In this document: in pieces, positions 25,196 to 53,700 of the stretch
How the letters are laid out: each line of letters opens with the position of its first letter
Position numbering within the stretch: position 1 is the first letter of the stretch
Origin: Owenia fusiformis
Lineage: Eukaryota > Annelida > Polychaeta > Sabellida > Oweniidae
Direction: 5' to 3'
Length of the DNA: 64,000 bases
Assembly (NCBI GenBank): GCA_903813345.2
Contig: CAIIXF020000005.1
Location: forward strand, 39,125,375 to 39,189,374
Translations under genes and position numbers: made by a program
Notes under the pieces: generated by a model
What the model was told of the DNA's origin: nothing
The model's database searches: none
The model's input: the letters and a program-made list of their open reading frames with translations, nothing else

Positions 25196-25209
25196 AGCAA
25201 AGCTGTAGC

Positions 25210-28672: not shown

Positions 28673-30044
28673 AAGATCAATTTCAATGGCAAATGATTCC
28701 AGTTTATAAAATTGGTCATCGAGGGTAACAGTGTCATCTCTCAGATTTGGGAAATATACTCCTCTTGCATATGAAGGCATTTATTTTATACTACATTCCC
28801 TGATGGAGAAGACTGTACTTCATTTCCATTCAATTCATGTCCATTTTGTGTTACTTGTCGAGGGGTTTTCTTGTCTTTTGACTCGGATATTTCCTTGAGC
28901 AAACTATTTATTGGAGAAATCAAGCCAGATGAGTCACTAGAATGCGGGTTCCTCTTGGCAAATAACATCTGAAAATATATGAATCTATTCATTGTTATGC
29001 AACAACGGTTGGCACAAATCGTATGTTCTAGATCCCACATCTTACCATATTTTAGCTTACATGGTTGGCTATTGTTCAAGCATGTGATCAGTTATTAGAC
29101 AATGGGAGAGATAGTGAGAACCATCCTAAGTAATGTACAGAGGGATCTGGTCCAAGGCTAAATGTGACAGGTATGCCGATTACTGCAGCCAGAACGGTCA
29201 CATAGATACAGATGCCAAGATAGTGGGCAGTCACGGATCCCTTCCCATGGGCTGCAAGCCTGAAATAATTGGCCAATGTATTCAATTTAAACATACAAAA
29301 ATACAAGTATAAATGGGATCAAATTGCCAAGACACAAATTAAGTGTTGCTGCTTTGAATTCATCAAATAGTTAAAATATTCTTGCCACTATTTATTCACT
29401 AGTATTTAGCATTTTAGGTAATTACCATGCCGGCCACGTGATAAAGGCAGCAAAAAGAAGTATAATTGCTTTATATACAAGCATAACGATCCGCCACACA
29501 GTCACAGTATTACAGTCACAGACTACACGTAATGTCTGATATATTGTATCTCGTTCCACATCATACTAAAACACAAATGTGAGCAATTTATAATTTATGG
29601 ATTTGTTGAAATTCACAAAACTAAATATTCATGTTGTAAGACTGGTGTTTGAAGCAACCAATTCTTTCCTTACCCTTAAATGGTTAGGGGTTTGATAACT
29701 TTTTTCGAAGTTAATCTTTTGACCTGATTTTCTGGCTTTTCTAAAAACTGGATAAGGCATGTCACTCTAACCCCCTATGAGGAAAGTAAGACTTACTTCT
29801 CTCTGAAGATATTCCGTTCTGATATTAAGAGGATCTATGGACTGCCATAATACCAAAAGTAAAACATCTAGTAGAAAACATGGGGCTAAGATGATGCAGT
29901 ATTTCAACTCCTGTTGTACCTTAAGAGAGAAAACATGAAAGACATGACGTAATTGTTGCTATAGTGACAAAGATGTAACTAACACTCAGTACGACGGCAC
30001 ATTGAAGAAACTACTTTATAAATACTTTCAATTCTATAACGTGT

Positions 30045-31030
30045 CCTGAAAGTATAGGGGCCCCCTAGACAGACATATACCAATGTCTCCATAGTATGTG
30101 TCATATATATTGCCAAGTATTTACTTCGGTCCAAAGCCTTCTCTATATTCCGGCTTTGAGGAGGAAGATTGAGCTGCCTTAGTATTATAAATATTGTAAA
30201 TCATTGTGTCACACGCACAGTAAATATGGCATAATAATATGAAATATACCTTTATGTATAGATTTGAAGAACATCAGCTCACATCCCCGTCTGAATCTAT
30301 TGTTATATTTGATTTCTTTAAGCGAGAATAATTTCAAATGTTATTCACGTCCAGAACCGGAAGCCATTTTTAGCTACAGCGAGGAAATTTCATCATGTGT
30401 CAAACTCCGAAATGAAATTTTGAAATATCTAAATCCAGACAAGCAACGCTTCATCCTAAATATTATTAATATTCTTAAAAATATTTATAAAATTTATTAA
30501 AAATGAGTTCTAGGTGCGTGTAGGTGCGTGTAGCACAGTACATACGAAATCAATGAAGTTTCGTCTAGCTGTAAGCTAGAGACTCGAGTAACCAAGTATC
30601 ATGGTTCAACTCACAAATGGTAAAAAGTTATAGTTATAGGCATTTCAAAACTTGGTGTTTGGCCAAAAATATAGTTTATTTCAGTATCCTGGAAACAGCC
30701 CTGACCTGAAGATATATGATGGATATTGAGTTCTAAAAAGAGGATCCCTATTTGAAGCACGTTTAATGTCATATATGGAAAATATTGCTGCTGTTAATAT
30801 GGACTATGGAGACACACCAACTATTATTTTGGTGTAAAACTGACCTTAATTTTGGCCAAACACTAAATTTTGAAATGCCAGTAACTTTTTCCCATTTGTG
30901 AGTTAAACTATCGACACTTGGCAAATCAATGTAACTTTGGATAAGCGTTAAAATGATATATGACACATACTATGGAGACATTGGTATATGTCTGCCTATG
31001 GGGACCCCATACTTTCGGGACACCCTGCAT
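30045..31030. mobile_element. Foldback element in the helix 3-4 intron, in all three cassettes
   Basis: The left arm GACAGACATATACCAATGTC followed by TCCATAGTATGTGTCATATA faces its complement about 0.4-0.5 kb away. The right end reads GGGGACCCCATACTTTCGGG ACACCCTG. Copies: unit A here (enlarged by the 471-bp insertion), unit B about 38700-39208, unit C about 48008-48550. It was in place before the array formed. Confidence 0.72.
30121..30591. mobile_element. 471-bp insertion with 8-bp target duplication (unit A only)
   Basis: Unit B reads through CCAAGTATCATGG at 38773. Unit A has CCAAGTAT (30113-30120), 471 bp, then CCAAGTAT again (30592-30599). The insert begins TTACT and ends AGTAA. An 8-bp duplication is typical of hAT-type elements. 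The insert contains a direct TAGGTGCGTG doublet but no transposase. Confidence 0.75.
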
Positions 31031-33637
31031 TTGTATCAAATCCATCACAATTAAATCTGGACTTCTTTTATTGAGTTTAAAGAAATACTTACTGATTTTG
31101 TAAGACCTTTGGTATGAAAGTGGTACATGGCAAATGAATTAACTAGCATCCCACCAACTGATAAAGTAAAGCCAAACACAAGCAGCCACGAGGCAACCTA
31201 GAAATTCAGAAGATCGGTCATTTTAAAGGCAAACATCAATTTCTAAATAATGTATGAATACAATTTGACAGTCATAGTTTTTCATTAATTTCAGATAGTT
31301 TCTCTCATTTTCAAGCCCAATAACTGCTGTCTATCAAAATCATATGGACTCATAATTTTACAAAATCATCTCATATCATGGTTTGCCCTGGTTTGATGTA
31401 ACGGTTAACGAGTAATCATTCTTTCAAATACTATCAAGTACTACTTTTTCAAAAGTAGTCGATTAAATAAAAGAATACAATATTCCAACGTTAAATGTGT
31501 AATAATGTGTATGCATCTGTATGTATGAATGTATATTGTGTATTATGTCTGTGTAAGAAAGATGCAATAAATAAAAAAAGCAATTTAAAAAAGATGAAAA
31601 AAAAGTTTAAAAATGAAGGTGAAAAAATGAATAAAATATTAGTAGTTGTTAGGGCAGACTAACCTTAATGCAGTTTATCTTTCAATTATCAATGATCAAC
31701 ATGATAATTGTTAATCTGTATACATACCTGACAAGCACTTTGATGGTTCTCTGCAGTAGCATTATGTTCATCAATTCCCATAAGGATAACAGCTATATTG
31801 AGGATCAGGCACCCAATACACACCATTGCCCTAATGATCGGCCATCCATATGTGTTGGCACTGTATGAAACACAATGTACCATGTTAGATGTACAGATAA
31901 ATCAAACAAAAAAGTAAACATTTTTCAAAATCAGGATAGAAATACTATTGCTCTAATAATGATTGGCCACCCAAATGTGATGGCACTGCAAGATACATGT
32001 ATCGATCAAGAATCCAACAAAAAAGTAACAAATTTCAAAATCTAAAATAGAAAACCTTAATCAGTAGAGACAGCCACAAGAATCAAAATAACTCACCTGT
32101 GATCTCTGTAAATGAACATAACTAGAAGAATAGCAAAGCATATGACAATACCAGCACAGGCAATAACAGAGTAGATCGCAAATAAGACTGCAGAAACTTG
32201 TAACTGTGTATATTCTAGACGAGGTTCGGTATTTGGTATAGTGTTACCATATGGCTCCCACATATATTCAGTACTCTTTCTAAAGTCCATAGTTTGAGTA
32301 GATCTGTCATAATATGCTATTGCTTCGGCTTTGCCACCTGGAATTGGAAGACAAGTATCAGTTCAGTTATGCTTATATATGTTTACGCTTTATAAAATTA
32401 AGGTAATGAAACATTGTGATAATGTAGAATTCCTCATTTCACGTTTGTGATTCTTTTTCTATACTTGGTGCTTTGTGAATTCGTATTGCACCGTTGTACT
32501 TACTTCTAATTTGCTGGAAGCTAAGGTCTTCTACCCTCGTTCTTTTTTCAGTAAACGACACGGGTCCCTATAATAATAGAATAATCACTTATGGTACAAA
32601 ATGCGTTTGGAGGGTAATCAAACTGAATATGAATAGCACTGCATTGGTACATTATTCGATTTCTCATGAAAGAATTACATGCATAACTTTACAAATATAT
32701 TGGAAATCGCAAAGGAGATGAAGAATTTGAAGAACAAAACTCAACAGTCTTTTATCAAATGAAAATTAACACCCATAATTAGAAATGTCGAAAATGAATT
32801 ATCATCCAAAGGGGATCAAGACTCAAGAGAATTTACAGTTGCACCAGGAAAGGACAATTGTTTCATTGCTTGATTTATATAGCAAAAACATTGATAAAAA
32901 ATCCTGAAAGACCTAACACATTTCCCCGTGTACTGCGCCTATTCATTTAGCAATTCAATTGTAAACTTTCTCTTGAAAAAATACATCGATCACATCAGAT
33001 CAGATTTTTCTAGCAAAAATAAGCTACTCCCCCCCCCCCCTCCGTTCATTTCTTAGCTTCTGATCACCGGACATGTCTATGGTGAGACTCTGTTTTGGTC
33101 TTTTATCGCACTATTTTATCGGTGAACGTTTGAAAAGGAAAATTGCCTTGACACGCATCCAGAAAGTATGTCACGTTTCTTTAACTCACTATGTGGTAGA
33201 ATCTGGTTAGTTACATGCAAGCACCACCTCTCGCAAACGGGGTGACCAAATGGGGTGGCCGCACAAAAACTTTACCTTCTAATTTTGGAATAACTTAATA
33301 TGATACAATCTTTATATGTTTTTGTGTGGATAGAGTGTTCAAATGGATAGGAGAAAAAATGGTTTACGTATATTGAGTGATTTTTTGATTAAGAGTATCA
33401 CATTTTAATCTACTAAAACAATAAACAAAAGTAGTTTTGTGAAATTATGCGATTTCTGGCTTTGCCAGTATCTGAGTCATTTCCGGATTGCACTCATACA
33501 TGCATTCTGATACTCATGGCATCTTTCTGTTTCACCTTTCTGTTTCATCAACTCAGGGCTGAGAAGAAATGAGATGTCTTGGTCTATCATGATGGCATAC
33601 ATGTATCAGTATTATGTGTATTATACCCATTTTCCTC

Positions 33638-34236
33638 AAAGGAGTGGTATCGATATGGCGAACTTTTTGAACAAACATTTCTCTTTCAGTCATCAAAAAT
33701 TCTGAAAATTTTACACATCGTCAATTTAATGGTCATCTTTTGGATGGTAACATTATAATATGAAACACATATACTTTTCTCTGTATTGTTTTAGAAAATA
33801 CATCAGACACTTCTTTTGTTCTTGTAGTTCGGAATGAAATAAAACATCTATCCGAACCTCATTGGAACAAAACGACATAAACACAACGTGTTTAGGTCTC
33901 TCAATATTGTAATTGTACAAAGGAAAGTTTGGTTGATTTTAAAAAAGTATCTTGTTCATGAAATAAAAGGTTTATCTTAATTTTAACTATTTTGTTTTAT
34001 TTTTTGCATACTTTTTGTTAAATCAACCAAAATTTCCTTTGTATAACTATATAATATTGAGAAGTCTAGGAAAATGTTGTATATGCTATTTTGTTCCAAC
34101 AAGGTTCGGAAAGACATTTTATTTCATTCTGAAGAATTGTTAGAAAGGAACAAAAAACAATTGCACTTTAAAACAAAAGGACCATGTTTTTACAGAATGT
34201 TTTCAATAATTGGTTAAAGAGAAAAACATTATTGTA
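33638..34236. mobile_element. ATCGAT-end MITE family, copy 5 (unit B)
   Basis: It starts AGGAGTGGTATCGATATGGC and contains the family blocks TTGATTTTAAAAAAGTATCTTG and GGTTCGGAAAGACA. The right end is truncated at about 34236. The same truncated copy lies at 41823-42424 in unit C, so the truncation predates the B/C duplication. Confidence 0.78.
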
Positions 34237-37200
34237 TTCATAATAAAATAAATTGACTACGTATAAAGAATCATAAATTAATATTAAATAAATTAAATAA
34301 AACATAAATTGCGTTCTTTGACAAATACTGTGCAAGACGATCGCGAAGTTTTATTTACTTGATGTCAATAAACTAAAAAAAAGGTGATTGTCTGTGTTTG
34401 CGTTTCAAATTGTTGCCCCGGATTTCAATGCATTGAATAAGATTCACTTTTAAAATGCTATTGTAAGCTAGTATTGAAAATAAATGCAAATAGTTCAGTG
34501 GTTTAAGGTTAAGTTCGTGGTTTATGTAGGATATAAGACTTGACGAGATGCCAAAAAGCACGTAGCGATGTGAAGGTCATAAAGAACATTGAAATAAGAA
34601 CTGTTTCTAATTCAATGATCTTTTCAAATGAAGATGAAAGAAGATTTTTCTTGATGCTGAATAAGTTTTTCGTCATGTTATTTGTCATAATACACTTCTA
34701 ATGTCCCATTATTTGTTTGGAAATAAAATCTGTATTCATACCCTATGTGTCTCTCCGACAGACGATAAGAGATGACTTCATTAGTGCAAAATTGTCGTTT
34801 TGAATATTAACCTGACTGTATATGTCGTCATTTAGAACCCGTATTGTTTGCTCACCCTCGAAGATTTATTAATCCTATTTGGGAACCATTGCAAACGTGG
34901 TTTCTGCATCTACATTGAAAAATTAAGTTCATTCAAAAATAAAAAAATTCTTGATAATAAAATGGATATGTTTTGGCCCACCGAGTATACTAAAGTAGTT
35001 GTAACGGCACTATAAAACCTAGCGCATGTCGTCGAGAGCTAATTCGCTACCGGGTAGGACACATAAAATTATCGGGTATTCCTCCTGTTTTCATCGGAGC
35101 CAATAAAATTTATTTAATGATGTAATACGTTCCTTGGAGTTACTTGTGCTTTAATGTTCTCTTCAATTCACATAAAATGTCAATTTAGGCACCCAAAAAC
35201 CCACATACAAGATCAAAACCCAAAAGGGGTGTCCTCGCATTGCTCATTCTCAACCACTTACATCTTAGAAAACAGCTCAACCTGTCAACTATAGATCCAG
35301 TGATAGCAAAGTGATTCCCAAATCAACTTCTGCCTCTAAAACTCTCCTTTTTTATGGATCATTGATCATACATGTACGTGTCATGGCCGTAGCCAGCTTC
35401 CAGTCAGGGTGGTGCGATCGCCAAAAATGTTGGTTTCAGATCGTGGCATACACAGGGAGATATGCCGATTACTTAGTTGCCTGGCCAGAACAAGTCATGC
35501 TTCTCTATTTTCTCAATAACTTTCTCAATTTTGAATATTTTTTCACGAAATATTCACAGTATAAACTTTAAAGAATTCCTAACATACAATTTTTTTATAT
35601 GGTAAATGCCTCATTAATTTCATCGTTACAACCTTTTAAAAAATAATGTCATATTCTGTTAATGGGTCATTTTTTTCTAAAAAGATACGAAAAATCTCCT
35701 ATTACGTTTTGTCCTAATATGGTCTACAAATTTGATTGCAGTCTTTGATAGGGGATCATTTATCTTTTTTAGTGTTCTAAATCCACCATACTATTTCGAG
35801 ACCACATGATCTCAAGCATACTGCTCGTCCCATAAAAGGCATTACTACTCGCCTATTGTCATACATGATGGAGATAAAAGATGCTTTCAAATGGCGACAA
35901 AAATGACCCATCATCAGAATCTTATGGTCCTGCCAGAAACCATAAAACCACGTACGCGTATTATGGAATTCTGGAGTTTTGATATTACGTTGACTGATGT
36001 TATGATTTGGTATATTCTTATCGTATGTCATTTTTCATAATCGCGAGGTTTTTATAATCTTTGAAATAATACCATATTTGGAATTGTAAGAGTGAAAGTG
36101 GTTGGATCACATGATTTACATTAAAGAATATTGAGTAGTGATTTCTTCATAATAATATACCAACCATATCAACTACTTTAGTAATCTTTCATTTATTCAA
36201 AGAATATAAGCTATGAAATTGTTGTATAAAACATCTATAGTGTTGAACACATTGATCTTTTTAATTATTTAAACAATACAATACATAAACAGTACAAAAT
36301 GTGAATAAGCACCGTCCTCATTAGTTTTTGTTCAAATCCATGATTCCTTGCAGGTCAAGTGACAGCTTCAGCACCTGCAATATAGTTGGCAAAATCTGGC
36401 CATACCTAAAGTTGCCAGTGGTCCTGTGGCCCAGTGGCCATTTCAGGCACTTCTTGCCAAATATCTTGCAAGTACATGGTCAGAATCAAGACTTCTTAAT
36501 CATTTAATTGATTCTAGACTACGCAATTATTTGATTCTTAAAGCTGACACTCTTGGCTTTCCAAATGTATATTGGTACCTTAGTGCAGATGGGGTCATTT
36601 ATTTGACCCTAATTTGTACTACAACATGGTTTTCAGTTTGATTGAAATTTGTAAACGATGAATCATTTTTGTTATAATTGTACCGCATAAAGTATATAAA
36701 AGAAGTGAGTAGCTCCCACAATAATTTGCCATTACTTGTCTTTCATCACCAATATACACATTACTCGATTTGTGTGATATGCATGCAATGATTGGCTCCC
36801 AGGATTCAATCTCGATATCATTTCGTTTCGTTTGGTACATACACTAAGTCACGGGAATTAACAAAGCCTCGAAGGATGTCGTGATTACGAAATTCAAAAT
36901 AAAACACTCGGCATCTTCATATTTTGAATAGCGATTTCTGGTCTCATATATTACACAAACATTTCAAAACACTCAAGAAGTGATCAAGATATTAACAAAA
37001 TCTTTTGGATTGCTGATTATGAATTCATAGCCAGTTTAATGTCAGACAATCGACATTTTCAATGGCAGTCATCCTTGACATGTTTGCCAGGAAACGCGCA
37101 TTCACAAAGTAAAATTTGAAATCGTGGAAATGGCGGCTAACTCAGTTGAACACCATCAATTCTAAATTACATTAATACTTTTACAGTTGAGCTTTCCAAA

Positions 37201-37351
37201 CTCTGTGAGGATATTCAGATTAAAACTATAGTGAAAATTCTGAGATCAATTTCAATGGCAAATGATTCCAGTTTATAAAACTGATCATCGAGGGTAACAG
37301 TGGTATCTCTCAGATTTGGGAAATCTACTCCTCTCGCATAAGGCATTTATT

Positions 37352-40300
37352 TTATACTACATTCCCTGATGGAGAAGACTGTACTTCATTTCCATTCAAT
37401 TCATGTCCATTTTGTGTTACTTGTCGAGGGTTTTTCTTGTCTTTTGACTCGGATATTTCCTTGAGCAAACTATTTATTGGAGAAATCAAGCCAGATGTGT
37501 CACTAGAATGCGGGTTCCTCTTGGCAAATAACATCTGAAAATATATATATGAATCTATTCATTGTTATGCAACAACGGTTGGCACAAATCGTATGTTCTA
37601 GATCCCACATCTTACCATATTTTAGCTCACATGGTAGGCTATTGTTTAAGCATGTTATCAGTTATTAGACAGTGGGAGAGATAGTGAGAACCATCCAATG
37701 ACATTTGACATATTACGATTACTTACAGTACAAAGAATTACGATTGATGTTGAAATAGTGCACAGTAGAATGAACCCTCCAGCCACACCATAATGTACAG
37801 AGGGATCTGGTCCAAGGCTAAATGTGACAGGTATGCCGATTACTGCAGCCAGAACGGTCACATAGATACAGATGCCAAGATAGTGGCCAGTCACGGATCC
37901 CTTCCCATGGGCTGCAAGCCTGAAATAATTTGCCAATGTATTCAAGTTAAACATACAAAAATACAAGTATAAATGGGATCAAATTGCCAAGACACAAATT
38001 AAGTGTTGCTGCTTTGAATTCATCAAATAGTTAAAATATTATTGCCACTATTTATTCACTAGTATTTAGCATTTTAGGTAATTACCATGCCGGCCACGTG
38101 ATAAAGGCAGCAAAAAGAAGTATAATTGCTTTATATACAAGCATAACGATCCGCCACACAGTCACAGTATTACAGTCACAGACTACACGTAATGTCTGAT
38201 ATATTGTATCTCGTTCCACATCATACTAAAACACAAATGTGAGCAATTTATAATTTATGGATTTGTTGAAATTCACAAAACTAAATATTCATGTTGTAAG
38301 ACTGGTGTTTGAAGCAACCAATTCTTTCCTTACCCTTAAATGGTTAGGGGTTTGATAACTTTTTTCGAAGTTAATCTTTTGACCTGATTTTCTGGCTTTT
38401 CTAAAAACTGGATAAGGCATGTCACTCTAACCCCCTATGAGGAAAGTAAGACTTACTTCTCTCTGAAGATATTCCGTTCTGATATTAAGAGGATCTATGG
38501 ACTGCCATAATACCAAAAGTAAAACATCTAGTAGAAAACATGGGGCTAAGATGATGCAGTATTTCAACTCCTGTTGTACCTTAAGAGAGAAAACATGAAA
38601 GACATGACGTAATTGTTGCTATAGTGACAAAGATGTAACTAACACTCAGTACGACGGCACATTGAAGAAACTACTTTATAAATACTTTCAATTCTATAAC
38701 GTGTCCTGAAAGTATAGGGGCCCCCTAGACAGACATATACCAATGTCTCCATAGTATGTGTCATATATATTGCCAAGTATCATGGTTCAACTCACAAATG
38801 GTAAAAAGCTATAGTTATAGGCATTTCAAAACTTGGTGTTTGGCCAAAAATATAGTTTATTTCAGTATCCTGGAAACAGCCCTGACCTGAAGATATATGA
38901 TGGATATTGAGTTCTAAAAAGAGGATCCCTATTTGAAGCACGTTTAATGTCATATATGGAAAATATTGCTGCTGTTAATATGGCCTATGGAGACACACCA
39001 ACTATTATTTTGGTGTAAAACTGACCTTAATTTTGGCCAAACACTAAATTTTGAAATGCCAGTACATTTTTCCCATTTGTGAGTTAAACTATCGACACTT
39101 GGCAAATCAATGTAACTTTGGATAAGCGTTAAAATGATATATGACACATACTATGGAGACATTGGTATATGTCTGCCTATGGGGACCCCATACTTTCGGG
39201 ACACCCTGCATTTGTATCAAATCCATCACAATTAAATCTGGAATTCTTTTATTGAGTTTAAAGAAATACTTACTGATTTTGTAAGACCTTTGGTATGAAA
39301 GTGGTACATGGCAAATGAATTAACTACCATCCCACCAACTGATAAAGTAAAGCCAAACACAAGCAGCCACGAGGCAACCTAGAAATTCAGAAGATCGGTC
39401 ATTTTAAAGGCAAACATCAATTTCTAAATAATGTATGAATACAATTTGACAGTCATAGTTTTTCATTAATTTCAGATAGTTTCTCTCATTTTCAAGCCCA
39501 ATAACTGCTGTCTATCAAAATCATATGGACTCATAATTTTACAAAATCATCTCATATCATGGTTTGCCCTGGTTTGATGTAACGGTTAACGAGTAATCAT
39601 TCTTTCAAATACTATCAAGTACTACTTTTTCAAAAGTAGTCGATTAAATAAAAGAATACAATATTCCAACGTTAAATATAAATGTGTAATAATGTGTATG
39701 CATCTGTTTGTATGAATGTATATTGTGTATTATGTCTGTGTAAGAAAGATGCAATAAATAAAAAAGCAATTTAAAAAAGATGAAAAAAAAGTTAAAAAAT
39801 GAAGGTGAAAAAATGAATAAAATATTAGTAGTTGTTAGGGCAGACTAACCTTAATGCAGTTTATCTTTATCTTCAATTATCAATGATCAACATGATAATT
39901 GTTAATCTGTATACATACCTGACAAGCACTTTGATGGTTCTCTGCAGTAGCATTATGTTCATCAATTCCCATAAGGATAACAGCTATATTGAGGATCAGG
40001 CACCCAATACACACCATTGCCCTAATGATCGGCCATCCATATGTGTTGGCACTGTATGAAACACAATGTACCATGTTAGATGTACAGATAAATCAAACAA
40101 AAAAGTAAACATTTTTCAAAATCAGGATAGAAATACTATTGCTCTAATAATGATTGGCCACCCAAATGTGATGGCACTGCAAGATACATGTATCGATCAA
40201 GAAATCCAACAAAAAGGTAACAAATTTCAAAATCTAAAATATAAAACCTTAATCAGTAGGGACAGCCACAAGAATCAAAATAACTCACCTGTGATCTCTG

Positions 40301-41058
40301 TAAATGAACATAACTAGAAGAATAGCGAAGCATATGACAATACCAGCACAGGCAATAACAGAGTAGATCGCAAATAAGACTGCAGAAACTTGTAACTGTG
40401 TATATTCTAGACGAGGTTCGGTATTTGGTATAGTGTTACCATATGGCTCCCACATATATTCAGAACTCTTTCTAAAGTCCATAGTTTGAGTAGATCTGTC
40501 ATAATATGCTATTGCTTCGGCTTTGCCACCTGGAATTGGAAGACAAGTATCAGTTCAGTTATGCTTATATATGTTTACGCTTTATAAAATTAAGGTAATG
40601 AAACATTGTGATAATGTAGAATTCCTCATTTCACGTTTGTGATTCTTTTTCTATACTTGGTGCTTTGTGAATTCGTATTGCACCGTTGTACTTACTTCTA
40701 ATTTGCTGGAAGCTAAGGTCTTCTACCCTCGTTCTTTTTTCAGTAAACGACACGGGTCCCTATAATAATAGAATAATCACTCATGGTACAAAATGCGTTT
40801 GGAGGGTAATCAAACTGAATATGAATAGCACTGCATTGGTACATTATTCGATTTCTCATGAAAGAATTACATGCATAACTTTACAAATATATTGGAAATC
40901 GCAAAGGAGATGAAGAATTTGAAGAACAAAACTCAACAGTCTTTTATCAAATGAAAATTAACACTCATAATTAGAAATGTCGAAAATGAATTATCATCCA
41001 AAGGGGATCAAGACTCAAGAGAACTTACAGTTGCACCAGGAAAGGACAATTGTTTCAT
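37352..41058 (-). CDS. 7TM cassette B: tandem copy, exons intact, ligand domain absent
   Basis: Second copy of the receptor's 3' half. Exons: 41029-41058 (remnant of exon 10, starting at an in-frame [13 protein letters not shown]), 40696-40759, 40289-40529, 39919-40051, 39274-39378, 38457-38579, 38086-38225, 37727-37919, 37352-37534. All splice sites, phases and the stop match cassette C. Differences I see are few and conservative (for example KSSEYMW for KSTEYMW, SANTYGW for SAITYGW, several synonymous changes). Read from the ATG it would be a receptor of about 403 residues with only linker, seven helices and tail. Alternatively exon 10 of the full gene could splice to exon 11 here. Whether it is expressed cannot be told from sequence. 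Confidence 0.75.
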
Positions 41059-41822: not shown

Positions 41823-42424
41823 TCAAAGGAGTGGTATCGATATGGCGAACTTTTTGAACAAACATTTCTCTTTCAGTCATCAAAAAATTCTGAAAATTTT
41901 ACACATCGTCAATTTAATGGTCATCTTTTGGATGGTAACATTATAATATGAAAACTACACATATACTTTTCTCTGTATTGTTTTAGAAAACACATCAGAC
42001 ACTTCTTTTGTTCTTGTAGTTTGGAATGAAATAAAACATCTATCCGAACCTCATTGGAACAAAACTACATAAACACAACGTGTTTAGGTCTCTCAATATT
42101 GTAATTGTACAAAGGAAAGTTTGGTTGATTTTAAAAAAGTATCTTGTTCATGAAATAAAAGGTTTATCTTAATTTTAACTATTTTGTTCTATTTTTTGCA
42201 TACTTTTTGTTAAATCAACCAAAATTTCCTTTGTATAACTATAATATTGAGAGGTCTAGGAAAATGTTGTATATGCTATTTTGTTCCAACAAGGTTCGGA
42301 AAGACATTTTATTTCATTCTGAAGAATTGTTAGAAAGGAACAAAAAACAATTGCACTTAAAAACAAAAAGACCATGTTTTTACAGAATGTTTTCAATAAT
42401 TGGTTAAAGAGAAAAACATTATTG
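41823..42424. mobile_element. ATCGAT-end MITE family, copy 6 (unit C)
   Basis: Near-identical to the unit B copy at 33638-34236, including the truncated right end at AGAGAAAAACATTATTG. Confidence 0.78.
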
Positions 42425-43637
42425 TATTCATAATAAAATAAATTGACTACGTATAAAGAATCATAAATTAATATTAAATAAATTAAATAAAATATAAATT
42501 GCGTTCTTTGACAAATACTGTGCAAGACGATCGCGAAGTTTTATTTACTTGATGTCAATAAACTAAAAAAGGTGATTGTCTGTGTTTGCGTTTCAAATTG
42601 TTGCCCCGGATTTCAATGCATTGAATAAGTTTCACTTTCAAAATGCTATTGTAAGCTAGTATTGAAAATAAATGCAAATAGTTCAGTGGTTTAAGGTTAA
42701 GTTCGTGGTTTATGTAGGATATAAGACTTGACGAGATGCCAAAAAGCACGTAGCGATGTGAAGGTCATAAAGAACATTGAAATAAGAACTGTTTCTAATT
42801 CAATGATCTTTTTAAATGAAGATGAAAAAAGATTTTTCTTGATGCTGAATAAGTTTTTCGTCATATTATTTGTCATAATACACTTCTAATGTCCCATTAT
42901 TTGTTTGGAAAAAAATCTGTATTCATACCCTATGTGTCTCTCCGACAGACGATAAGAGATGACTTCATTAGTGCAAAATTGTCGTTTTGAATATTAACCC
43001 GACTGTATGTGTCGTCATTTAGAACCCGTATTGTTTGCTCACCCTCGAAGATTTATTAATCCTATTTGGGAACCATTGCAAACGTGGTTTCTGCATCTAC
43101 ATTGAAAAATTAAGTTCATTCAAAAATAAAAAAAATTCTTGATAATAAAATGGATATGTTTTGGCCCACCGAGTATACTAAAGCAGTTGTAACGGCACTA
43201 TAAAAGCTAGCGCGTGTCGTCGAGAGCTAATTCGCTACCGGGTAGGACACATAAAATTATCGGGTATTCCTCCTGTTTTCATCGGAGCCAATAAAATTTA
43301 TTTAATGATGTAATACGTTCCTTGGAGTTACTTGTGCTTTAATGTTCTCTTCAATTCACATAAAATGTCAATTTAGGCACCCAAAAACCCACATACAAGA
43401 TCAAAACCCAAAAGGGGTGTCCTCGCATTGCTCATTCTCAACCACTTACATCTTAGAAAACAGCTCAACCTGTCAACTATAGATCCAGTGATAGCAAAGT
43501 GATTCCCAAATCAACTTCTGCCTCTAAAACTCTCCTTTTTTATGGATCATTGATCATACATGTACGTGTCATGCCGTAGCCAGCTTCCAGCCAGGGTGGT
43601 GCGATCGCCAAAAATGTTGGTTTCAGATCGTGGCATA

Positions 43638-44010
43638 CACAGGGAGATATGCCGATTACTTAATTTGTACAAAATTACTACTAAATTAGCACTCTGGCAA
43701 AAGTGCACTCATAGGCACACATGCCACGAGTGCTAATTCATGATATTAGTACTCATTTAGTGCTGAAAATCAATTTTATTAGTACTATTTTATCACTCAT
43801 GATATGAGTACTCTTTTAACGCTGAAAAATCAATGAAATTACTGCTATTTTATCACTCATAATATGAGTACACATTTACTACTAACACATGTAATAAATC
43901 AGTAGTCATGTCATAAGTGCTCATTTAGTACTAATATTAACTGAAATGAGTACTCAGTTAGCGCTAAAATGCCATGAGTACTATTTTAGTACTCGGCATA
44001 TCTCCCTGTG
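43638..44010. mobile_element. MITE with TA target duplication (unit C), empty site known
   Basis: The termini are CACAGGGAGATATGCCGA and TCGGCATATCTCCCTGTG. Inner sequence repeats motifs such as GAGTACT and TAGTACT. The flanks read GTGGCATA left and TAAGTGAGC right. Unit A at 25656-25668 reads GTGGTATAAGCGAGC, an uninterrupted site with one TA, so the insertion duplicated TA. Unit B keeps only the left end (35449-35475). Confidence 0.85.
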
Positions 44011-46060
44011 TAAGTGAGCTCAAAAAAAATTAAAGTTGCAACAATTAGTGCAGAGGGGCCATTCAACGATCAACGATATTTCATCAAGATTTACATCTAT
44101 TTTTATTTATATCATATATATGTACAAAGAAACCCCCTAGATAATATTATTTCAGCTGATATTCCTCTTCAAACATGGTGGATCTTAAAAATATAAAAGT
44201 GGATTTCCCCTTTTTGAAGCTTATAACTGAATTTACACTTCTTAATGCTGAAATTGATAGTTTATCTATACATTAAGAAAACAGGTATGTCAAAGAAGTT
44301 ATTAAGCCAAATGTTGAGTTGATAGCTCAGAAGTTAAAATTTTCCTATTTTCTCTCTACGGCCCTGTTGCCCCTTTAAGATTTATTTTGAATCTTACAAA
44401 AAATGATGTAACTTTTTTCAAAATTGAACTAGAATCTTCAAATAAAAAGCTTCTTCAATTCATGGTTCTATTTTTATTGGATACGCCTACATGCGTGATG
44501 TTGACACCGAGAATGTCCATACATAATGTATCCCTGGGAGTAAAATTGCTGATGTCTGTGCTAAAATAGCAAAATCAGACTCGACTTAGAATAACATTAT
44601 ATTCATTTATTCTCATACCTTCGGAGTCTTCCCTTCGGTCCTGCCAGAAACCATAAAACCACGTAAACGTATTATGGAGTTCTGGAGTTTTGAAATTACG
44701 TTGCCTGATGTTATGATTTGGTATATTCTTATCGTATGTCATTTTTCATAATCGCGAGGTTTTTATAATCTTTAAAATAATACCATATTTGGAATTGTAA
44801 GAGTGAAAGTGGTTGGATCACATGATTTACATTAAAGAATATTGAGTAGTGATTTCTTCATAATAATATACCAACCATATCAACTACTTTAGTAATCTTT
44901 CATTTATTCAAAGAATATAAGCTATGAAATTGTTGTATAAAACATCTATATAATTGTGTAGAACACATTGGTTTTTTTAATTATTTAAACAATACAATAC
45001 ATAAACAGTACAAAATGTGAATAAGCACCGTCCTCATTAGTTTTTGTTCAAATCCATGATTCCTTGCAGGTCAAGTGACAGCTTCAGCACCTGCAATATA
45101 GTTGGCAAAATCTGGCCATACCTAAAGTTGCCAGTGGTCCTGTGGCCCAGTGGCCATTTCAGGCACTTCTTGCCAAATATCTTGCAAGTGCATGGTCAGA
45201 ATCAAGACTTCTTAATCATTTAATTGATTCTAGACTACGCAATCATTTGATTCTTAAAGCTGACACTCTCGGCTTTCCAAATGTATATTGGTACCTTAGT
45301 GCAGATGGGGTCATTTATTTGACCCTAATTTGTACTACAACATGGTTTTCAGTTTGATTGAAATTTGTAAACGATGAATCATTTTTTTATAATTGTACCG
45401 CATAAAGTATATAAAAGAAGTGAGTAGCTCCCACAATAATTTGCCATTACTTGTCTTTCATCACCAATATACACATTACTCGATTTGTGTGATATGCATG
45501 CAATGATTGGCTCCCAGGATTCAATCTCGATATCATTTCGTTTCGTTTGGTACACACACTAAGTCACGGGAATTAACAAAGCCTCGAAGGATGTCGTGAT
45601 TACGAAATTCAAAATAAAACACTCGGCATCTTCATATTTTGAATAGCGATTTCTGGTCTCATATATTACACAAACATTTCAAAACACTCAAGAAGTGATC
45701 AAGATATTAACAAAATCTTTTGGATTGCTGATTATGAATTCATAGCCAGTTTAATGTCAGACAATCGACATTTTCAATGGCAGTCATCCTTGACATGTTT
45801 GCCAGGAAACGCGCATTCACAAAGTAAAATTTGAAATCGTGGAAATGGCGGCTAACTCAGTTGAACACCATCAATTCTAAATTACATTAATACTTTTACA
45901 GTTGAGCTTTGCAAACTCTATGAGGATATTCAGATTAAAACTATAGTGAAAATTCTGAGATCAATTTCAATGGCAAATGATTCCAGTTTATAAAACTGAT
46001 CATCGAGGGTAACAGTGGTATCTCTCAGATTTGGGAAATCTACTCCTCTTGCATAAGGCA

Positions 46061-46066
46061 TTTATT
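46061..46066 (-). promoter_or_regulatory. AATAAA directly after the receptor stop codon
   Basis: The stop codon TAA of cassette C is followed immediately by AATAAA on the minus strand. The same arrangement is kept in cassettes B (37346-37351) and A (28780-28785). If used as the polyadenylation signal, the 3' UTR would be only 10-30 nt. Other AT-rich signals further downstream are possible. Confidence 0.4.
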
Positions 46067-49000
46067 TTATACTACATTCCCTGATGGAGAAGACTGTACT
46101 TCATTTCCATTCAATTCATGTCCATTTTGTGTTACTTGTCGAGGGTTTTTCTTGTCTTTTGACTCGGATATTTCCTTGAGCAAACTATTTATTGGAGAAA
46201 TCAAGCCAGATGTGTCACTAGAATGCGGGTTCCTCTTGGCAAATAACATCTGAAAATATATGAATCTATTTATTGTTATGCAACTACGGTTGGCACAAAT
46301 CGTATGTTCTAGATCCCACATCTTACCATATTTTAGCTCACATGGTAGGCTATTGTTTAAGCATGTTATCAGTTATTAGACAGTGTGAGAGATAGTGAGA
46401 ACCATCCAATGACATTTGACATATTACGATTACTTACAGTACAAAGAATTACGATTGATGTTGAAATAGTGCACAGTAGAATGAACCCTCCAGCAACACC
46501 ATAATGTACAGAGGGATCTGGTCCAAGGCTAAATGTGACAGGTATGCCAATTACTGCAGCCAGAACGGTCACATAGATACAGATGCCAAGATAGTGGCCA
46601 GTCACAGATCCCTTCCCATGGGCTGCAAGCCTGAAATAATTTGCCAATGTATTCAAGTTAAACATACAAAAATAATGTATAAATTGGATCAAATTGCCCA
46701 GACACAAATTAAGTGTTGGTGCTTTAATTCATCAAATACTTAAAATATTCTTGCCACTATTTATTCACTTGTATTAAGCATTGTAGGTAATTACCATGCC
46801 GGCCACGTGATAAAGGCAGCAAAAAGAAGTATAATTGCTTTATATACAAGCATTACGATCCGCCACACAGTCACAGTATTACAGTCACAGACTACACGTA
46901 ATGTCTGATATATTGTATCTCGTTCCACATCATACTAAAACACAAATGTGAGCAATTTATAATTTATGGATTTGTTGAAATTCACAAACCTAAATATTCA
47001 TCTTGTAAGACTGGTGTTTGAAGCAACCAATTCATTCCTTACCCTTAAATGGTTAGGGGTTTGATAACTTTTTTCAAAGTAAATCTTTTGACCCGATTTT
47101 CTGGCTTTTCTAAAAACTGGATAAGGCATGTTTTAGCGAAGAAATGTCACAATGTCACTCTAACCCCCCTAGGAGGAAAGTAAGACTTACTTCTCTCTGA
47201 AGATATTCTGTTCTTATATTAAGAGGATCTATGGACTGCCATAATACCAAAAGTAAAACATCAAGTAGAAAACATGGGGCTAAGATGATGCAGTATTTCA
47301 ACTCCTGTTGTACCTAAAAGAGCATGAAAGACATGACGTAATTGTTGCTATAGTGACAAAGATGTAACTAACACTCAGTATGACGGCACATTGAAGAAAC
47401 TACTTTATAAATATCAGAAACAAGTCAAATTCTTTACTTCAGAGAATATTTTTAATTTATTGAGACTTTCGACTAATATCCTTTAGTCTTTTTCAAAATA
47501 TAACAGCATGTATACATTTATGTGACGTCATAAACAGACAATGGAAAATTTAATTATGTAACAAATGACCTAGTAACCTAAAAAATAACAACAACAAAAA
47601 ACATAGATACGAAAAAACGAATGACCAAATAATAACCTTAAGATAAATATATCATCGTTATGGTAACAATTAAACTCAAATATTACTATTGCATACTTTG
47701 CTATACCATTCTTAATTTACAATATTTAGGTTATTATTAGGTCATTCGTTTTTTCGTATCTATGTTTTTTGTTGTTGTTATTTTTTAGGTTACTAGGTCA
47801 TTTGTTACATTATTAAATTTTCCATTGTCTGTTTATGACGTCACATAAATGTATACATGCTGTTATATTTTGAAAAAGACTAAAGGATATTAGTCGAAAG
47901 TCTCAATAAATTAAAAATATTCTCTGAAGTAAAGAATTTGACTTGTTTCTGATATATTAACCAGAGAGATGAACTTACATAGAACTACTTTATAAATACT
48001 TTCAATTCTATAACTTGTCCTGAAAGTATAGGGGCCCCCTAGACAGACATATACCAATGTCTCCATAGTATGTGTCATATATCATTTTAACGCTTATCCA
48101 AAGTTACATTGATTTGCCAAGTATCATGGTTCAACTCACAAATGGTAAAAGGTTATAGTTATAGGCATTTCAAAACTTGGTGTTTGGCCAAAAATATAGT
48201 TTATTTCAGTATCCTGGAAACAGCCCTGACCTGAAGATAGGATCGATATTGAGTTCTAAAAAGAGGATCCCTATTTGAAGCACGTTTAATGTCATATATG
48301 GAAAATATTGCTGCTGTTAACATGGCCTAGGGAGACACACCAACTATTATTTTGGTGTAAAACTGACCTTAATTTTGGCCAAACACTTAATTTTGAAATG
48401 CCAGTAACTTTTTCCCATTTGTGATTTACTATGATACTTGGCAAATCAATGTAACTTTGGATAAGAGTTAAAATGATATATGACACATACTATGGAGACA
48501 TTGGTATATGTCTGCCTATGGGGGCCACCTTACTTTCGGGACACCCTGTATTTGTACCAAATGCATCAAAATTTAATCTGCTGGACTTCTTTTACTGAGT
48601 TTAAAGAAATACTTACTGATTTTGTAAGACCTTTGGTATGAAAGTGGTACATGGCAAATGAATTAACTAGCATCCCACCAACTGCTAAAGTAAAGCCAAA
48701 CACAAGCAGCCACGATGCAACCTAAAAATTCAGAAGAACGGTCATTTTAAAGGCAAAACATCAATTTCTAAATAATGTATAAATACAATTTGACAGTCAT
48801 AGTTTTCATTGATTTCAGATAGTGTCTCTGATTTGTAAACCCAATAGCTGCTGTCTATCAAAATCATATGGACCCATAATTTTGTATATGCATCTGTATG
48901 TACATGTATGTATGTATGTATTTATATTATGTATTATGTCTGTGTAAGAAAGATGCAATAAATAAAGAAAATTGAAAAAATATAAAAAAAAGTTTAAAAA

Positions 49001-50727
49001 TGTACAATGAAGGTGAAAAAATGAATAAAATATTAGAAGTTGTTAGGGCAGACTAATCTTATTGTAGTTTCAATTATCTTTCAAGTATTAATGATCTACA
49101 TGGTTGTTATTAATCTGTATACATACATACCTGACAAGCACTTTGATGGTTCTCTGCAGTAGCATTGTGTTCATCAATTCCCATAAGGATAACAGCTATA
49201 TTGAGGATCAGGCAGCCAATACATACTATTGCCCTAATGATCGGCCATCCATATGTGATGGCACTGTATGAAACACAATGTACCATGTTAGGTGTACAGA
49301 GAAAAAGAACAAAAAAGTAAACATTTTCCAAAAACCATATGGAATAACAGATTATTTCAATTAAAAGGCAAACCACTTTTCTTTAAATCTTGGATAGATA
49401 GTGGTATTATTTATGTCAAAGATCTTATCATTCGAAATGATTTTTTAAATGTAAACTATATTCTAGAAAAATTGAGGAATAAAATAAATTGGATTTCAGA
49501 ATATTTTCAAGTCTCAATTGCAATAAAATCAATAAAAAAAATCATTAACATAGAACAAGCAAACTTCACAAATATATCAAGAAAACTCAATTTCAAAGTA
49601 AAAAATGTTCAATTAGATTTTAGAGGCCAAAAATCCAATTTCTTTTATAACATATTGAAGAATAAAAAATCTGAAAAATGGTTTGTCTCAAAAAAATGGG
49701 AAAAAGATTTCTGTATAACAAATCAATGTAAAATAGATGAAATAAATTGGCAGAATTTTTTTGTTAGCAAGATCATCAAAATTAAAGACAAAAAAGTTGC
49801 CAATTTTAATTTCAAACTAATTAATAACATACTTCCTGGGTTAACTGACTTATTTATCTATGGTATAACAAATTATTATCATTGTAGTATTTGCAATCAC
49901 TTATGTGATTTGAAACATATTCTTTTTGAATGTTGTTTGTCAAAGAATATATGGAAATTTATATACAACACATGTGGTCTCAATATTTCGTATAGAAAAA
50001 TAATAATTGGTTATAATGGCCAAGACTCTCAAACTAATTTTCTGAATTATTTTACAAGTATAGTTGCTTACAGCATTTACAAATCCTACATTTTAGAACT
50101 GAATAGTAAAGAACAAAGAACATTTGAAAAGATACTTTTTATGTTAAAATATGAAATTAATTGTAGAAAAAATGTGTATTATTGTTCCAAATGGAATTTA
50201 TTATCCAAACTACTGCAATAAGATTATGTAAACCTGTTTTTATAAATCATGTACTGTCTATATATTTAGTAAATGAATGAAATAAAGACTATTTTAAAAG
50301 AAAAAAAAAACATTTTCCAAATTCAAGATAGAAATACTATTGTTCTTATGATTGGCCACCCAAATGTGATGGCACTGCAAGATACATGTATCGATCAAGA
50401 AATCCAACAAAAAAGTAACAAATTTCAAAATCTAAAATAGAAAACCTTAATCAGTAGAGACAGCCACAAGAATCAAAATAACTCACCTGTGATCTCTGTA
50501 AATGAACATAACTAGAAGAATAGCGAAGCATATGACAATACCAGCACAGGCAATAACAGAGTAGATCGCAAATAAGACTGCAGAAACTTGTAACTGTGTA
50601 TATTCTAGACGAGGTTCGGTATTTGGTATAGTGTTACCATATGGCTCCCACATATATTCAGTACTCTTTCTAAAGTCCATAGTTTGAGTAGATCTGTCAT
50701 AATATGCTATTGCCTCGGCTTTGCCAC
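46067..50727 (-). CDS. 7TM cassette C (exons 12-18), complete
   Basis: Exon 12 (50487-50727): stalk and helix 1 ([20 protein letters not shown]). Exon 13: helix 2 ([20 protein letters not shown]). Exon 14: helix 3, with the upstream ACQ cysteine and [18 protein letters not shown]. Exon 15: helix 4 ([20 protein letters not shown]). Exon 16: the extracellular VCDC cysteines and helix 5 ([20 protein letters not shown]). Exon 17: helices 6 and 7. Exon 18: tail with EISESKDKK. The ACQ and CDC cysteines are positioned for the conserved TM3-ECL2 disulfide. The intracellular end of helix 3 ([12 protein letters not shown]) departs from the GABA-B K..RVH pattern. One intron carries a snapback element (47414-47958) and another a LINE fragment (49331-50310). 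Confidence 0.92.
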
Positions 50728-53700
50728 CTGGAATTGGAAGACAAGTATCAGTTCAGTTATGCTTATATATGTTTACGCTTTATAAAAATTAAGGTAATGA
50801 AACATTGTGATAATGTAGAATTCCTCATTTCACGTTTGTGATTCTTTTTCTATACTTGGTGAATTTGTATTATACTTTGTGAATTCGTATTGCACCGTTG
50901 TACTTACTTCTAATTTGCTGGAAGCTAAGGTCTTCTTCCCTCGTTCTTTTTTCAGTAAACGACACGGGTCCCTATAATAATAGAATAATCACTTATGGTA
51001 CAAAATGCGTTTGGAGGGTAATCAAACTGAATATGAATAGCACTGCATTGGTACATTATTCGATTTCTCATGAAAGAATTACATGCATAACTTTACAAAT
51101 ATATTGGAAATCGCAAAGGAGATGAAGAATTTGAAGAACAAAACTCAACAGTCTTTTATCAAATGAAAATTAACACTCATAATTAGAAATGTCGAAAATG
51201 AATTATCATCCAAAGGGGATCAAGACTCAAGAGAACTTACAGTTGCACCAGGAAAGGACAATTGTTTCATTTCCTCAAGGAATAAATCTGTATAGTTTTT
51301 GTGTTTGTACGTGAACTCCTCTAGAGTGTTTGGTGCTATCCTCTTGATGGTGTTGCTCATAGCCAGGGCCATTGTCCATATCGAGTCATATCCATACAGG
51401 GACCAACCTGATTTATTTAGGTCACCTTCTAATCGGGCTTTCTCAAATACTCTGCTTATATTCTGTTAAACATAAAATGTAATTGAGATAATAATGAGTT
51501 ATAAGAAATAATTTGATATAATGAGGGTGATCAATGATCATTGGCAATGCACAGAAAAATGTGATACATATTAATGCTTAATAATTTACCTCTCCGCCTA
51601 TGGTTATGGTATCTGGGGACTGTTCAAGGAACGAAAAACTGCTAGTTCCAAACTGTCCTTCTACAGATTCTTCTATCTGACTCCAAGTACAGCTCACATT
51701 GCCATGTGTTGAATAATACGGTTCAAAATCATCCTATAAAAAGAAGGAACACAAAACAAATTGATATGAATCTTACTTATTTCATAGTCGAAAAGCAGGC
51801 ATTGGAAATACTGTCAGAAAATGAAGACGATGGTTTAAGAAAACTTGTTCTCGAACGTATACTATTTTGACCAAAGGGATAACTACATGTCCCTTTCAAT
51901 TTTTACCCTGGGACCTTATTACAAACATTTACCTTAAACCTGTTATACATGTACTCATTCGGGCAACAAGTGAATATTCAGAAGAAGAGAACTAAGTCCT
52001 CTCAAAAATAGTAGCTTAACCTTCCTAATATATAATAAGTTCAATTTGAATTCAATTCAATTTCAAAATAATTTATTTCATTTTTCATTACAAAATTTAC
52101 AACATTATACGGGCTATGACACCCCAGGGGGTGTATGACTGCCCATAATTAAATTTACAATAAACATGATAAACTGTGAACATTTAAAGTTGTACATAGG
52201 TCAATACAATAATATAATATAATATGAATACAATATACAAATACAATAATATGAGACAATAAAGAAATTAAATAAATGTTTTGGTTATTCTGTACTCAGG
52301 AGGTCAATTTTCAAACGAGATATGAGTGAATTTAAAGGTTTATTTCTAATATCTTCATTGAGGGAATTCCATATATATGAACCATGGACCTTAATAGAAT
52401 TTTCACCAATTCTGGTTCTATGTTTAGGAATATCTAAGTTATGACTAAATCGAGTTATACGTTGATGTATGTTTTCTCTAGTTTTAAAATAGTGATCGTA
52501 TAATTTTGAAGGGAACTTTATAGATTTGCTTATAACTTTTTTCATGAAAGAAACAGTTTGGATTGTGTGAATATGATAAATATTAAGTATTTTAAGATCT
52601 TAAAAATTGGGAATGTATGAGCTAATCTATCTGAATTTGTTATTAATCTAACAAATTTCTTTTGCAATATCAGTAGTTTATTTAATAGATTCTTACAAGC
52701 ATTTCCCCATAAAATATTAGAGAGAATATCAGAGAGTTATATATAATCATCTTTGATTTTAAAGTATGAGCACAATTTGTTCGATGTAACATTCCTATTA
52801 GGGGCTCATTTGGTAGCCAAAGGTGGGCCCGTCAGTGAGCAAATTTGAACCACATTATTTATCTCGGGAAACATGTCAGATTTAATGATTTGGAACTTTG
52901 ACGCCCAAAAAGCGACCATTATGGATAGCTTTTCTAGGTTTTATACCCCCCGAGGTTATTTTTGAGGGGGTCTCAACTCTTTCTTAATAACTTAAAAAAT
53001 ATTAAAGATATGTGTCTGAAACTTGCAGGGTACCTTCCTGGGGTCAACACATAGCTGTATTGAAAGTTGAGGATTATTTGGAATAACGGTTGCTATAGCA
53101 ACCAAGAAAATGTGTTTCTGAACTGGTAATTTACAGCAATTTTGGCCTGCAGCAACCTGGTTGAAGTTAGATATTTTTTCTATTGATGAATTTTCACATT
53201 GTTAATTGGTTTCAAAAACACACTACAACTGTATTCTTTCATTTTATTGCAGATTAGAATTGACACCATTAGTATTAGAGGTCCATAATCGTACATGAAT
53301 GAACCCACCCCCCAAAGTCTATAAAAAGTGGGCGTGGCACCAGACATGTTCCAGTTTGTAATTCATAAGTTTAAACACCCAATAAATAATGTTGATATCT
53401 ATGTTACCATGTTTCCAGTGGTAGTTGAAGAAGTTCTTTTAAAAAAACTATATATATTACCATGGAAACCATATATTTATGTTGCCATAGCAACAGAACT
53501 ATGGTAATGAAATAGCCAATAATTTGATCGAAGCCCTCATGCATGTGGTCCCATATATACAAAAATCAAATGTCCTGTATCTCTCAAAGATCGTAAAACC
53601 TTCCTGGGATCAACACAGAGCTGTATTGAAACTTTGGGATTATTTGGAGTAATGGTTGCTATAGCAACCAAGAAAATGTGTTTCCAAGCTGGACAATTTT

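What the first reader, a model, noticed from the sequence alone, without database searches (positions are those of the whole stretch)
28786..51462. One ligand domain followed by three tandem seven-helix cassettes
The GABA-B-like receptor has a single set of ligand-domain exons (62.2-51.2 kb) but three tandem copies of linker plus 7TM exons (C, B, A) in the same orientation. Exon 10 ends in phase 0 and every exon 11 copy starts in phase 0, so splicing from the shared ligand domain into any cassette would keep frame. That would be an alternative 3' cassette arrangement for a class C GPCR, which I have not seen described. The simpler readings are a partial tandem duplication giving dead copies, or a misassembly.
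Basis: partly seen in the sequence, partly recalled or inferred. Interest (0 to 1): 0.85.

Follow-up and report, generated by a model that had tools for sequence, protein, structure and literature searches.

The report
Receptor gene with repeated membrane half
In an animal genome, the back half of a GABA-B-like receptor gene has been copied twice in a row; two copies look intact and the last is broken, and the pattern fits an ordinary partial gene duplication, although use of the second copy by alternative splicing cannot be excluded.

Summary
The anatomy is real as sequence. A minus-strand GABA-B-like class C receptor gene has one ligand domain (exons 2-10) and three same-direction copies of the 7TM exons (11-18). 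Cassettes C and B are intact (393 aa each, 18 codon differences). Every unit starts 31 nt before the end of exon 10 and both junctions carry the same joint, so matching splice phases follow automatically and do not argue for use. B is a recombinant: A-like up to about exon 17, C-like from exon 18 through the 3' flank. Two ages emerge: about 7% divergence (C versus A) and about 1% (the event that made B). Best explanation: stepwise partial tandem duplication, C the working 3' end, B intact but unproven, A dead. Low amino-acid divergence between C and A (6 nonsynonymous, 10 synonymous) rejects a second cassette neutral since the split, but divergence before the duplication explains that equally well. 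An artefactual copy B (second haplotype) is not excluded. Alternative use needs cDNA. Multi-exon alternative 3' cassettes are already known elsewhere (GNAO).

The parts
62886..62958 (-). Candidate exon 1 (ATG, hydrophobic start, GTAAGT donor, ends in the phase exon 2 needs)
   Evidence: One of 6 mechanical candidates listed; not tested further
51241..62205 (-). Exons 2-10, single ligand-binding domain set: 62205-62039, 61615-61454, 61289-61246, 60984-60864, 60497-60390, 60003-59938, 59574-59515, 51733-51590, 51462-51241
   Evidence: Open frame with AG/GT borders; with a draft exon set, Pfam ANF_receptor E 1.1e-26 and PDB GABBR1 4mqe_A E 6e-21
46067..50971 (-). Cassette C, exons 11-18, intact: 50971-50908, 50727-50487, 49263-49131, 48721-48617, 47313-47191, 46934-46795, 46630-46438, 46249-46067
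   Evidence: Pfam 7tm_3 E 3.8e-29; PDB GABBR2 7ca3_B E 1.4e-32
37352..40759 (-). Cassette B, exons 11-18, intact: 40759-40696, 40529-40289, 40051-39919, 39378-39274, 38579-38457, 38225-38086, 37919-37727, 37534-37352
   Evidence: Pfam 7tm_3 E 1.8e-27
28786..32567 (-). Cassette A, broken: helix-7 end of exon 17 and its donor deleted (exon 17 remnant 29259-29131); the other 7 exons are present
41060..51271 (-). Repeat unit C (starts 31 nt before the end of exon 10)
32868..41059 (-). Repeat unit B; recombinant, A-like up to about 37970, C-like from about 37560 on
23580..32867 (-). Repeat unit A, with the original 3' flank
41029..41059 (-). Orphan 31-nt tail of exon 10 followed by its donor at junction C/B, without an exon 10 acceptor; the same at 32837-32867 for junction B/A
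49334..50322 (+). 989-nt insertion in intron 12 found only in unit C; overlaps a 309-aa plus-strand open frame 49292-50221 (stop to stop, no Pfam match)

Best explanation
A GABA-B-like receptor gene underwent a partial tandem duplication from 31 nt before the end of exon 10 into the 3' flank, giving an X-Y pair. Much later, unequal crossing-over between X and Y in or next to exon 17 gave X-(Y/X hybrid)-Y, today's C-B-A. The receptor is made by splicing exon 10 to cassette C, which ends in its own stop and poly(A) hexamer. B is an intact but probably unused copy, and A is a dead copy without helix 7. Shown: anatomy, intact frames of C and B, lesion in A, mosaic nature of B, two ages. Inferred: the order and kind of events, which cassette is transcribed, and that B is unused. 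(The confidences given here and for the rivals overlap: the rivals on origin and assembly can hold together with dead copies.)
For: Both junctions carry the same joint. Flank C-B differs by 1.0% (41 substitutions of 4,024 aligned bases, 2 of 2 local alignments), C-A by 7.1% (148 of 2,091, 5 of 6; the sixth, 25% different, pairs two members of a dispersed repeat and was dropped) and B-A by 6.8% (100 of 1,468, 4 of 5, same reason). Single-site patterns are mostly AB|C in exons 13-16 and BC|A in exon 18 and the flank. A lacks helix 7 and the exon 17 donor. AATAAA begins right after the stop codon in all three. B and A keep only 31 nt of exon 10 without an acceptor.
Against: C versus A outside the 5' tract: 6 nonsynonymous, 10 synonymous, omega 0.18. 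A Y cassette neutral since the split predicts 15-24 nonsynonymous changes (P 0.006 to 1.4e-5), so Y was under constraint for part of its history, which is odd for a copy dead on arrival unless X and Y diverged before the duplication. B is fully intact. No transcript or read data were available.
Confidence: 0.63

Rival explanations
1. Alternative 3' cassettes: exon 10 is spliced to exon 11 of C or B, giving one ligand domain with two slightly different 7TM halves, each ending in its own stop and poly(A) site. A would be a decayed third copy.
For: All splice sites, phases and frames of B are intact. Constraint between C and the other cassettes (omega 0.14 versus B; 0.18 versus A outside the 5' tract). 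Multi-exon 3' cassettes used this way are known in GNAO, exons 7-8 (passages of PMC5896119).
Against: No transcript evidence. Reaching B needs skipping of C and bypass of its poly(A) hexamers. Phase match and intact sites are expected for any copy about 1% old. C and B differ by only 6 residues. A is dead. Constraint may predate the duplication.
Confidence: 0.13
2. Partial assembly artefact: the true locus has two units (X-Y), and the middle unit B comes from mixing two haplotypes about 1% apart inside a near-identical repeat.
For: B switches between A-like and C-like sequence at about 1% from each on its matching side, which a haplotype switch in a repeat would also give. A carries an insertion of about 470 nt that B lacks, which could be allelic.
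Against: No N in the window. Unequal crossing-over gives the same pattern naturally. It would not explain away the 7% pair with its joint, which stays a two-copy duplication even then.
Confidence: 0.17
3. B (and once Y) is expressed from its own promoter as a receptor without ligand domain: the exon 10 tail retained at the junction holds an ATG in frame with exon 11.
For: The orphan tail reads ATG AAA CAA ... GCA ACT|GTAAGT at the C/B junction, in frame with exon 11. A GABABR2-like protein without Venus flytrap is reported in ascidians (passages of PMC9138782), and GPR156 matches the cassette (E 1.8e-08).
Against: No promoter or transcript evidence; I did not scan for promoters. The ATG is simply a codon of exon 10.
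Confidence: 0.05
4. Two full-length tandem receptor genes existed, and a deletion removed the second ligand domain, leaving the second 7TM half behind. Alternatively X and Y were strongly diverged alleles brought together by crossing-over.
For: Explains why X and Y diverged under constraint without alternative splicing. The first 920 nt of the three units differ by only 0.55-0.88%, so the junction itself may be much younger than the 7% divergence.
Against: Needs an extra event or very high allelic divergence. No second ligand domain showed among the repeats, which lists only alignments over 150 bases at E 1e-20 or better and could miss short or old remnants.
Confidence: 0.15

Closest known systems
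GABA-B receptor subunits (GABBR1/GABBR2) and the orphan GPR156
   Same: 7TM half best matches GABBR2 chains (7ca3_B E 1.4e-32); ligand half best matches GABBR1 (4mqe_A E 6e-21); GPR156 also matches the 7TM half (E 1.8e-08)
   Different: A single gene with three copies of the 7TM exons; GABA binding not shown
GNAO alternative exon pairs 7.1-8.1 / 7.2-8.2 (PMC5896119, passages read)
   Same: Tandem-duplicated multi-exon 3' cassette after shared 5' exons, chosen by mutually exclusive splicing
   Different: There two transcripts are described and both pairs are conserved across vertebrate clades; here no transcript data, 8 exons per cassette, one of three broken
Insect gustatory receptor genes with unique N-terminal and shared C-terminal exons (PMC6720082, passages read)
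   Same: Membrane receptor gene with repeated exon modules and a shared part
   Different: Mirror image: the 5' part varies and the 3' part is shared
Human tandem duplicated exon substitution events (PMC9741552, abstract and outline read)
   Same: Tandem copies of coding exons of which one is used
   Different: By the abstract most of those events are ancient and highly expressed; here copies are 1-7% diverged and expression is unknown
Ascidian GABABR2-like receptor without Venus flytrap (PMC9138782, passages read)
   Same: GABA-B-type 7TM without ligand domain, as an independently expressed B would be
   Different: B has no shown promoter or transcript

Membership tests
Class C GPCR, GABA-B type | 7TM domain of Pfam 7tm_3 | tested here: met
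   C E 3.8e-29 and B E 1.8e-27, above the curated cut-off; A was not scanned, its helix 7 is deleted
Class C GPCR, GABA-B type | Venus flytrap ligand domain | tested here: met
   ANF_receptor E 1.1e-26 with a draft exon set lacking exon 4 and the end of exon 8
Class C GPCR, GABA-B type | Closest solved relatives are GABBR1/2 | tested here: met
   15 of 17 matched distinct PDB sequences for cassette C are GABA-B subunits, the other 2 GPR156; 17 of 18 for the ligand half, the other a glutamate receptor 3.4
Class C GPCR, GABA-B type | No cysteine-rich domain between flytrap and 7TM (feature recalled) | tested here: met
   None seen by eye between exon 10 and helix 1 in the model; Pfam listed only ANF_receptor and 7tm_3 for the two halves
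Class C GPCR, GABA-B type | Binds GABA | not testable with these tools
   Ligand residues were not scored; needs an assay
Alternative 3' cassette gene (GNAO-like) | Shared 5' exons followed by two or more homologous 3' exon sets with matching phase | tested here: met
   C and B complete with phase 0 entry
Alternative 3' cassette gene (GNAO-like) | Transcripts using more than one cassette | not testable with these tools
   No cDNA held
Alternative 3' cassette gene (GNAO-like) | Cassettes kept by selection after the duplication | tested here: inconclusive
   C/A omega 0.18 rejects neutrality since the split; neutrality for the last half is not firmly rejected (P 0.2 to 0.013) and for the last quarter not at all (P 0.62 to 0.19); divergence before duplication is not excluded
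Partial tandem gene duplication with dead copies | Direct repeats with a breakpoint inside the gene and at least one disabled copy | tested here: met
   Breakpoint in exon 10; A disabled

The most novel reading that the evidence does not exclude
A class C receptor gene that shares one ligand domain between two interchangeable seven-helix halves chosen by splicing, so that one sensor can be wired to transducers differing at the linker and around helices 2 and 3 (helix places by the GABBR2 alignment and recall). Selection held the second half in place for a good part of the time since the copies diverged, and the array has since grown by unequal crossing-over, with the last copy decaying.
Probability: 0.12. 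Interest if true: 0.7.

Novelty: new member of a known kind. Interest (0 to 1): 0.36.

Why it matters
If the second cassette is used, it would be a class C receptor with a swappable transducer half, a natural domain-swap experiment at an early stage. No such case showed in the titles and abstract starts listed by the searches, which cover open-licence PubMed Central papers only. If it is not used, the locus is still a clean worked example of how internal tandem duplication and unequal exchange create, and then break, would-be alternative cassettes.

Tried and rejected
Phase compatibility as evidence for splicing: rejected, since it is automatic for copies that begin inside exon 10.

A missing exon between exons 14 and 15 (second intracellular loop): looked for in C and B. 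Not supported, because the GABBR2 alignment runs through that place with a one-residue gap.

Relaxed selection in A and B: a first Fisher test (P 0.046) was wrong. It counted two exon 18 changes as A-versus-B divergence after the split, although B's exon 18 groups with C. After re-scoring only 2 nonsynonymous (B) and 1 synonymous (A) are clearly later, plus 1 nonsynonymous in the crossover interval, so no claim is made.

Rows dropped: the 20 AB|C differences of the row 'pre' lie outside the repeat unit (51300-51272). A block of 47 BC|A sites in intron 14 (near C 48116-48011) is an effect of the insertion in A being aligned to unlike sequence, judged from the coordinates. The 3' flank row (40% for C-A) suffers likewise, so the flank was measured with local alignments instead.

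Relatives in other genomes: with 6 peptide patterns from cassette C, none in viral contigs; in genome contigs 23 stretches matched a pattern but none encoded a relative. No whole genome is held for this window. Rfam: 0 matches at the gathering threshold. The organism was not identified; a bivalve-like animal is only a guess from memory.

Papers: 20 listed; 0 papers; 3 listed; 6; 12 of 34 listed; 12 of 59 listed; 2. Three papers were read in passages (PMC5896119, PMC6720082, PMC9138782) and one in abstract and outline (PMC9741552).

Structure prediction and a promoter scan were not run: single-sequence models and consensus promoters would not bear on cassette use.
Full report
OBSERVATION. Self-comparison shows three direct copies of one block on the minus-strand gene. 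With AG/GT borders the gene reads as exons 2-10 (62205-51241, ligand half, single set) followed by three sets of eight exons, here called 11-18 (labelled e11, e12, e13, e14, e16, e17, e18, e19 in the scripts). Exon 11 starts at 50971 (C), 40759 (B) and 32567 (A), phase 0 after a phase 0 exon 10. A possible exon 1 with a hydrophobic start lies at 62958-62886, one of 6 candidates listed and untested.

WHAT IT ENCODES. The ligand half (draft exon set) matches Pfam ANF_receptor (E 1.1e-26) and the 7TM half 7tm_3 (C 3.8e-29, B 1.8e-27). For cassette C, 17 distinct PDB sequences match: 15 are GABA-B subunits and 2 GPR156. For the ligand half, 18 match: 17 GABA-B subunits and one glutamate receptor 3.4. 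So it is a GABA-B-like class C receptor; its ligand is unknown.

STATE OF THE CASSETTES. C and B each give 393 residues with all splice borders intact. They differ at 18 codons: 12 synonymous and 6 nonsynonymous, omega 0.14. Cassette A has a 90-nt net deletion in exon 17. It removes helix 7, as placed by the GABBR2 alignment, and the donor site; read on as it stands, the frame ends after ...PSVHYLGWFSLSLPLSNN. A cannot make a 7TM receptor, so the count of usable cassettes is two.

JUNCTIONS. Each unit begins 31 nt before the end of exon 10 (51271). In B and A this tail (AATGAAACAATTG...GCAACT, then the donor) follows directly on sequence homologous to the 3' flank ending near 23580. At the joint the two parents share only about two bases, with a similar stretch (AATTGTC in both) a few bases further on (by eye). 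No exon 10 acceptor was copied. The phase match into every exon 11 is a by-product of this.

HISTORY. Substitutions in the 3' flank: C-B 1.0% (41/4,024, 2 of 2 local alignments), C-A 7.1% (148/2,091, 5 of 6), B-A 6.8% (100/1,468, 4 of 5); the one dropped in each of the last two, 25% different, pairs members of a dispersed repeat. In the cassettes, sites mostly group A with B against C in exons 13-16. In exon 18 and the flank they group B with C against A, with the switch between about B 37970 and 37560, around exon 17. A block of 47 contrary sites in intron 14 was set aside as misalignment of A's insertion. B is therefore a Y/X mosaic, as unequal crossing-over between an older X-Y pair would make. 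In the first 920 nt of each unit the three differ by only 0.55-0.88%: 3 A-only, 5 B-only and 2 C-only sites, plus 14 nt of indels that set C apart. That stretch was homogenised late, or the junction is young. Copies also differ by insertions: 989 nt in C intron 12, about 470 nt in A with an 8-nt repeat at its ends, and about 570 nt in C intron 14.

SELECTION. Using A as the pure Y copy and leaving out the first 102 codons, C versus A shows 6 nonsynonymous and 10 synonymous differences over 269 codons, omega 0.18. If Y had been neutral since the split, 15-24 nonsynonymous differences are expected at 4.5-7% divergence (P 0.006 to 1.4e-5). Neutrality for the last half is not firmly rejected (P 0.2 to 0.013), and for the last quarter not at all (P 0.62 to 0.19). 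A simulation conditioned only on synonymous counts was weaker (P 0.03-0.10 for one neutral copy). So Y was under constraint for part of the X/Y divergence. This fits use of a second cassette, but equally divergence before the duplication (diverged alleles, or a former full-length second gene). Present use of B cannot be judged: a 1%-old copy is expected to be intact anyway.

MECHANISM. Most likely exon 10 is spliced to cassette C. C ends in a stop codon followed at once by AATAAA, with further hexamers downstream. B could be reached only by skipping C and its poly(A) sites. Nothing in the sequence shows that this happens.

ARTEFACT. The window has no N. Two haplotypes of a single-copy gene do not readily make three copies with the same joint twice, but a real X-Y pair plus a haplotype switch inside the repeat could make copy B. 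Reads are needed.

COMPARISON. Works-like precedent: GNAO, where the final exon pair 7-8 is duplicated and mutually exclusively spliced (PMC5896119, passages). Mirror image: insect gustatory receptors with unique N-terminal and shared C-terminal exons (PMC6720082, passages). A ligand-domain-free GABABR2-like receptor is reported in ascidians (PMC9138782, passages). No paper on a class C receptor with tandem 7TM cassettes showed in the listings (titles and abstract starts of the rows shown; open-licence papers only).

VERDICT. Real sequence feature and well observed, with one important correction (A is broken). Most likely a partial tandem duplication with a recombinant middle copy. The alternative-cassette idea is testable, not excluded and not supported by transcripts.

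Noticed in passing
window 18967-19768, minus strand: Two neighbouring open stretches resemble the N-terminal part of thioester-containing protein TEP1 (4lnv_A E 3e-05) and less so CD109 (E 0.0011); no Pfam match reached its cut-off. Possibly a TEP/alpha-2-macroglobulin-like gene downstream of the receptor.
   Followed up: partly
window 52799-58628 (inside intron 8): Large element with inverted arms (52799-54063 and 58628-57294, about 90% identical in inverse orientation) sits between a reverse transcriptase ORF (58626-59234, RVT_1 E 2.1e-19) and open frames near 52.3-52.7 kb that look by eye like its continuation (no Pfam match for one of them): apparently a mobile element nested in a retroelement.
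   Followed up: partly
window 40176-40148 and matching places in units A and C: A degenerate copy of the first 29 nt of exon 13 (86% identical in B; seen by eye in A and C) starts about 125 nt upstream of exon 13 in B; it looks like a fossil of an older, smaller exon duplication.
   Followed up: partly
window 11978-12543, 15423-15848, 25210-25616, 26090-26638, 33638-34178, 41825-42369: A dispersed repeat of about 400-560 nt present in both orientations, mostly 81-88% identical between copies; copies sit inside the 3' flank of the receptor units.
   Followed up: no
window 47411-47955: Hairpin-like inverted repeat (234-nt arms, 98% complementary, 77 nt apart) within an insertion of about 570 nt in intron 14 of unit C that B lacks.
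   Followed up: no
window 1-757: Tandem repeats with period about 165 nt, about 82-86% identical, at the window edge.
   Followed up: no
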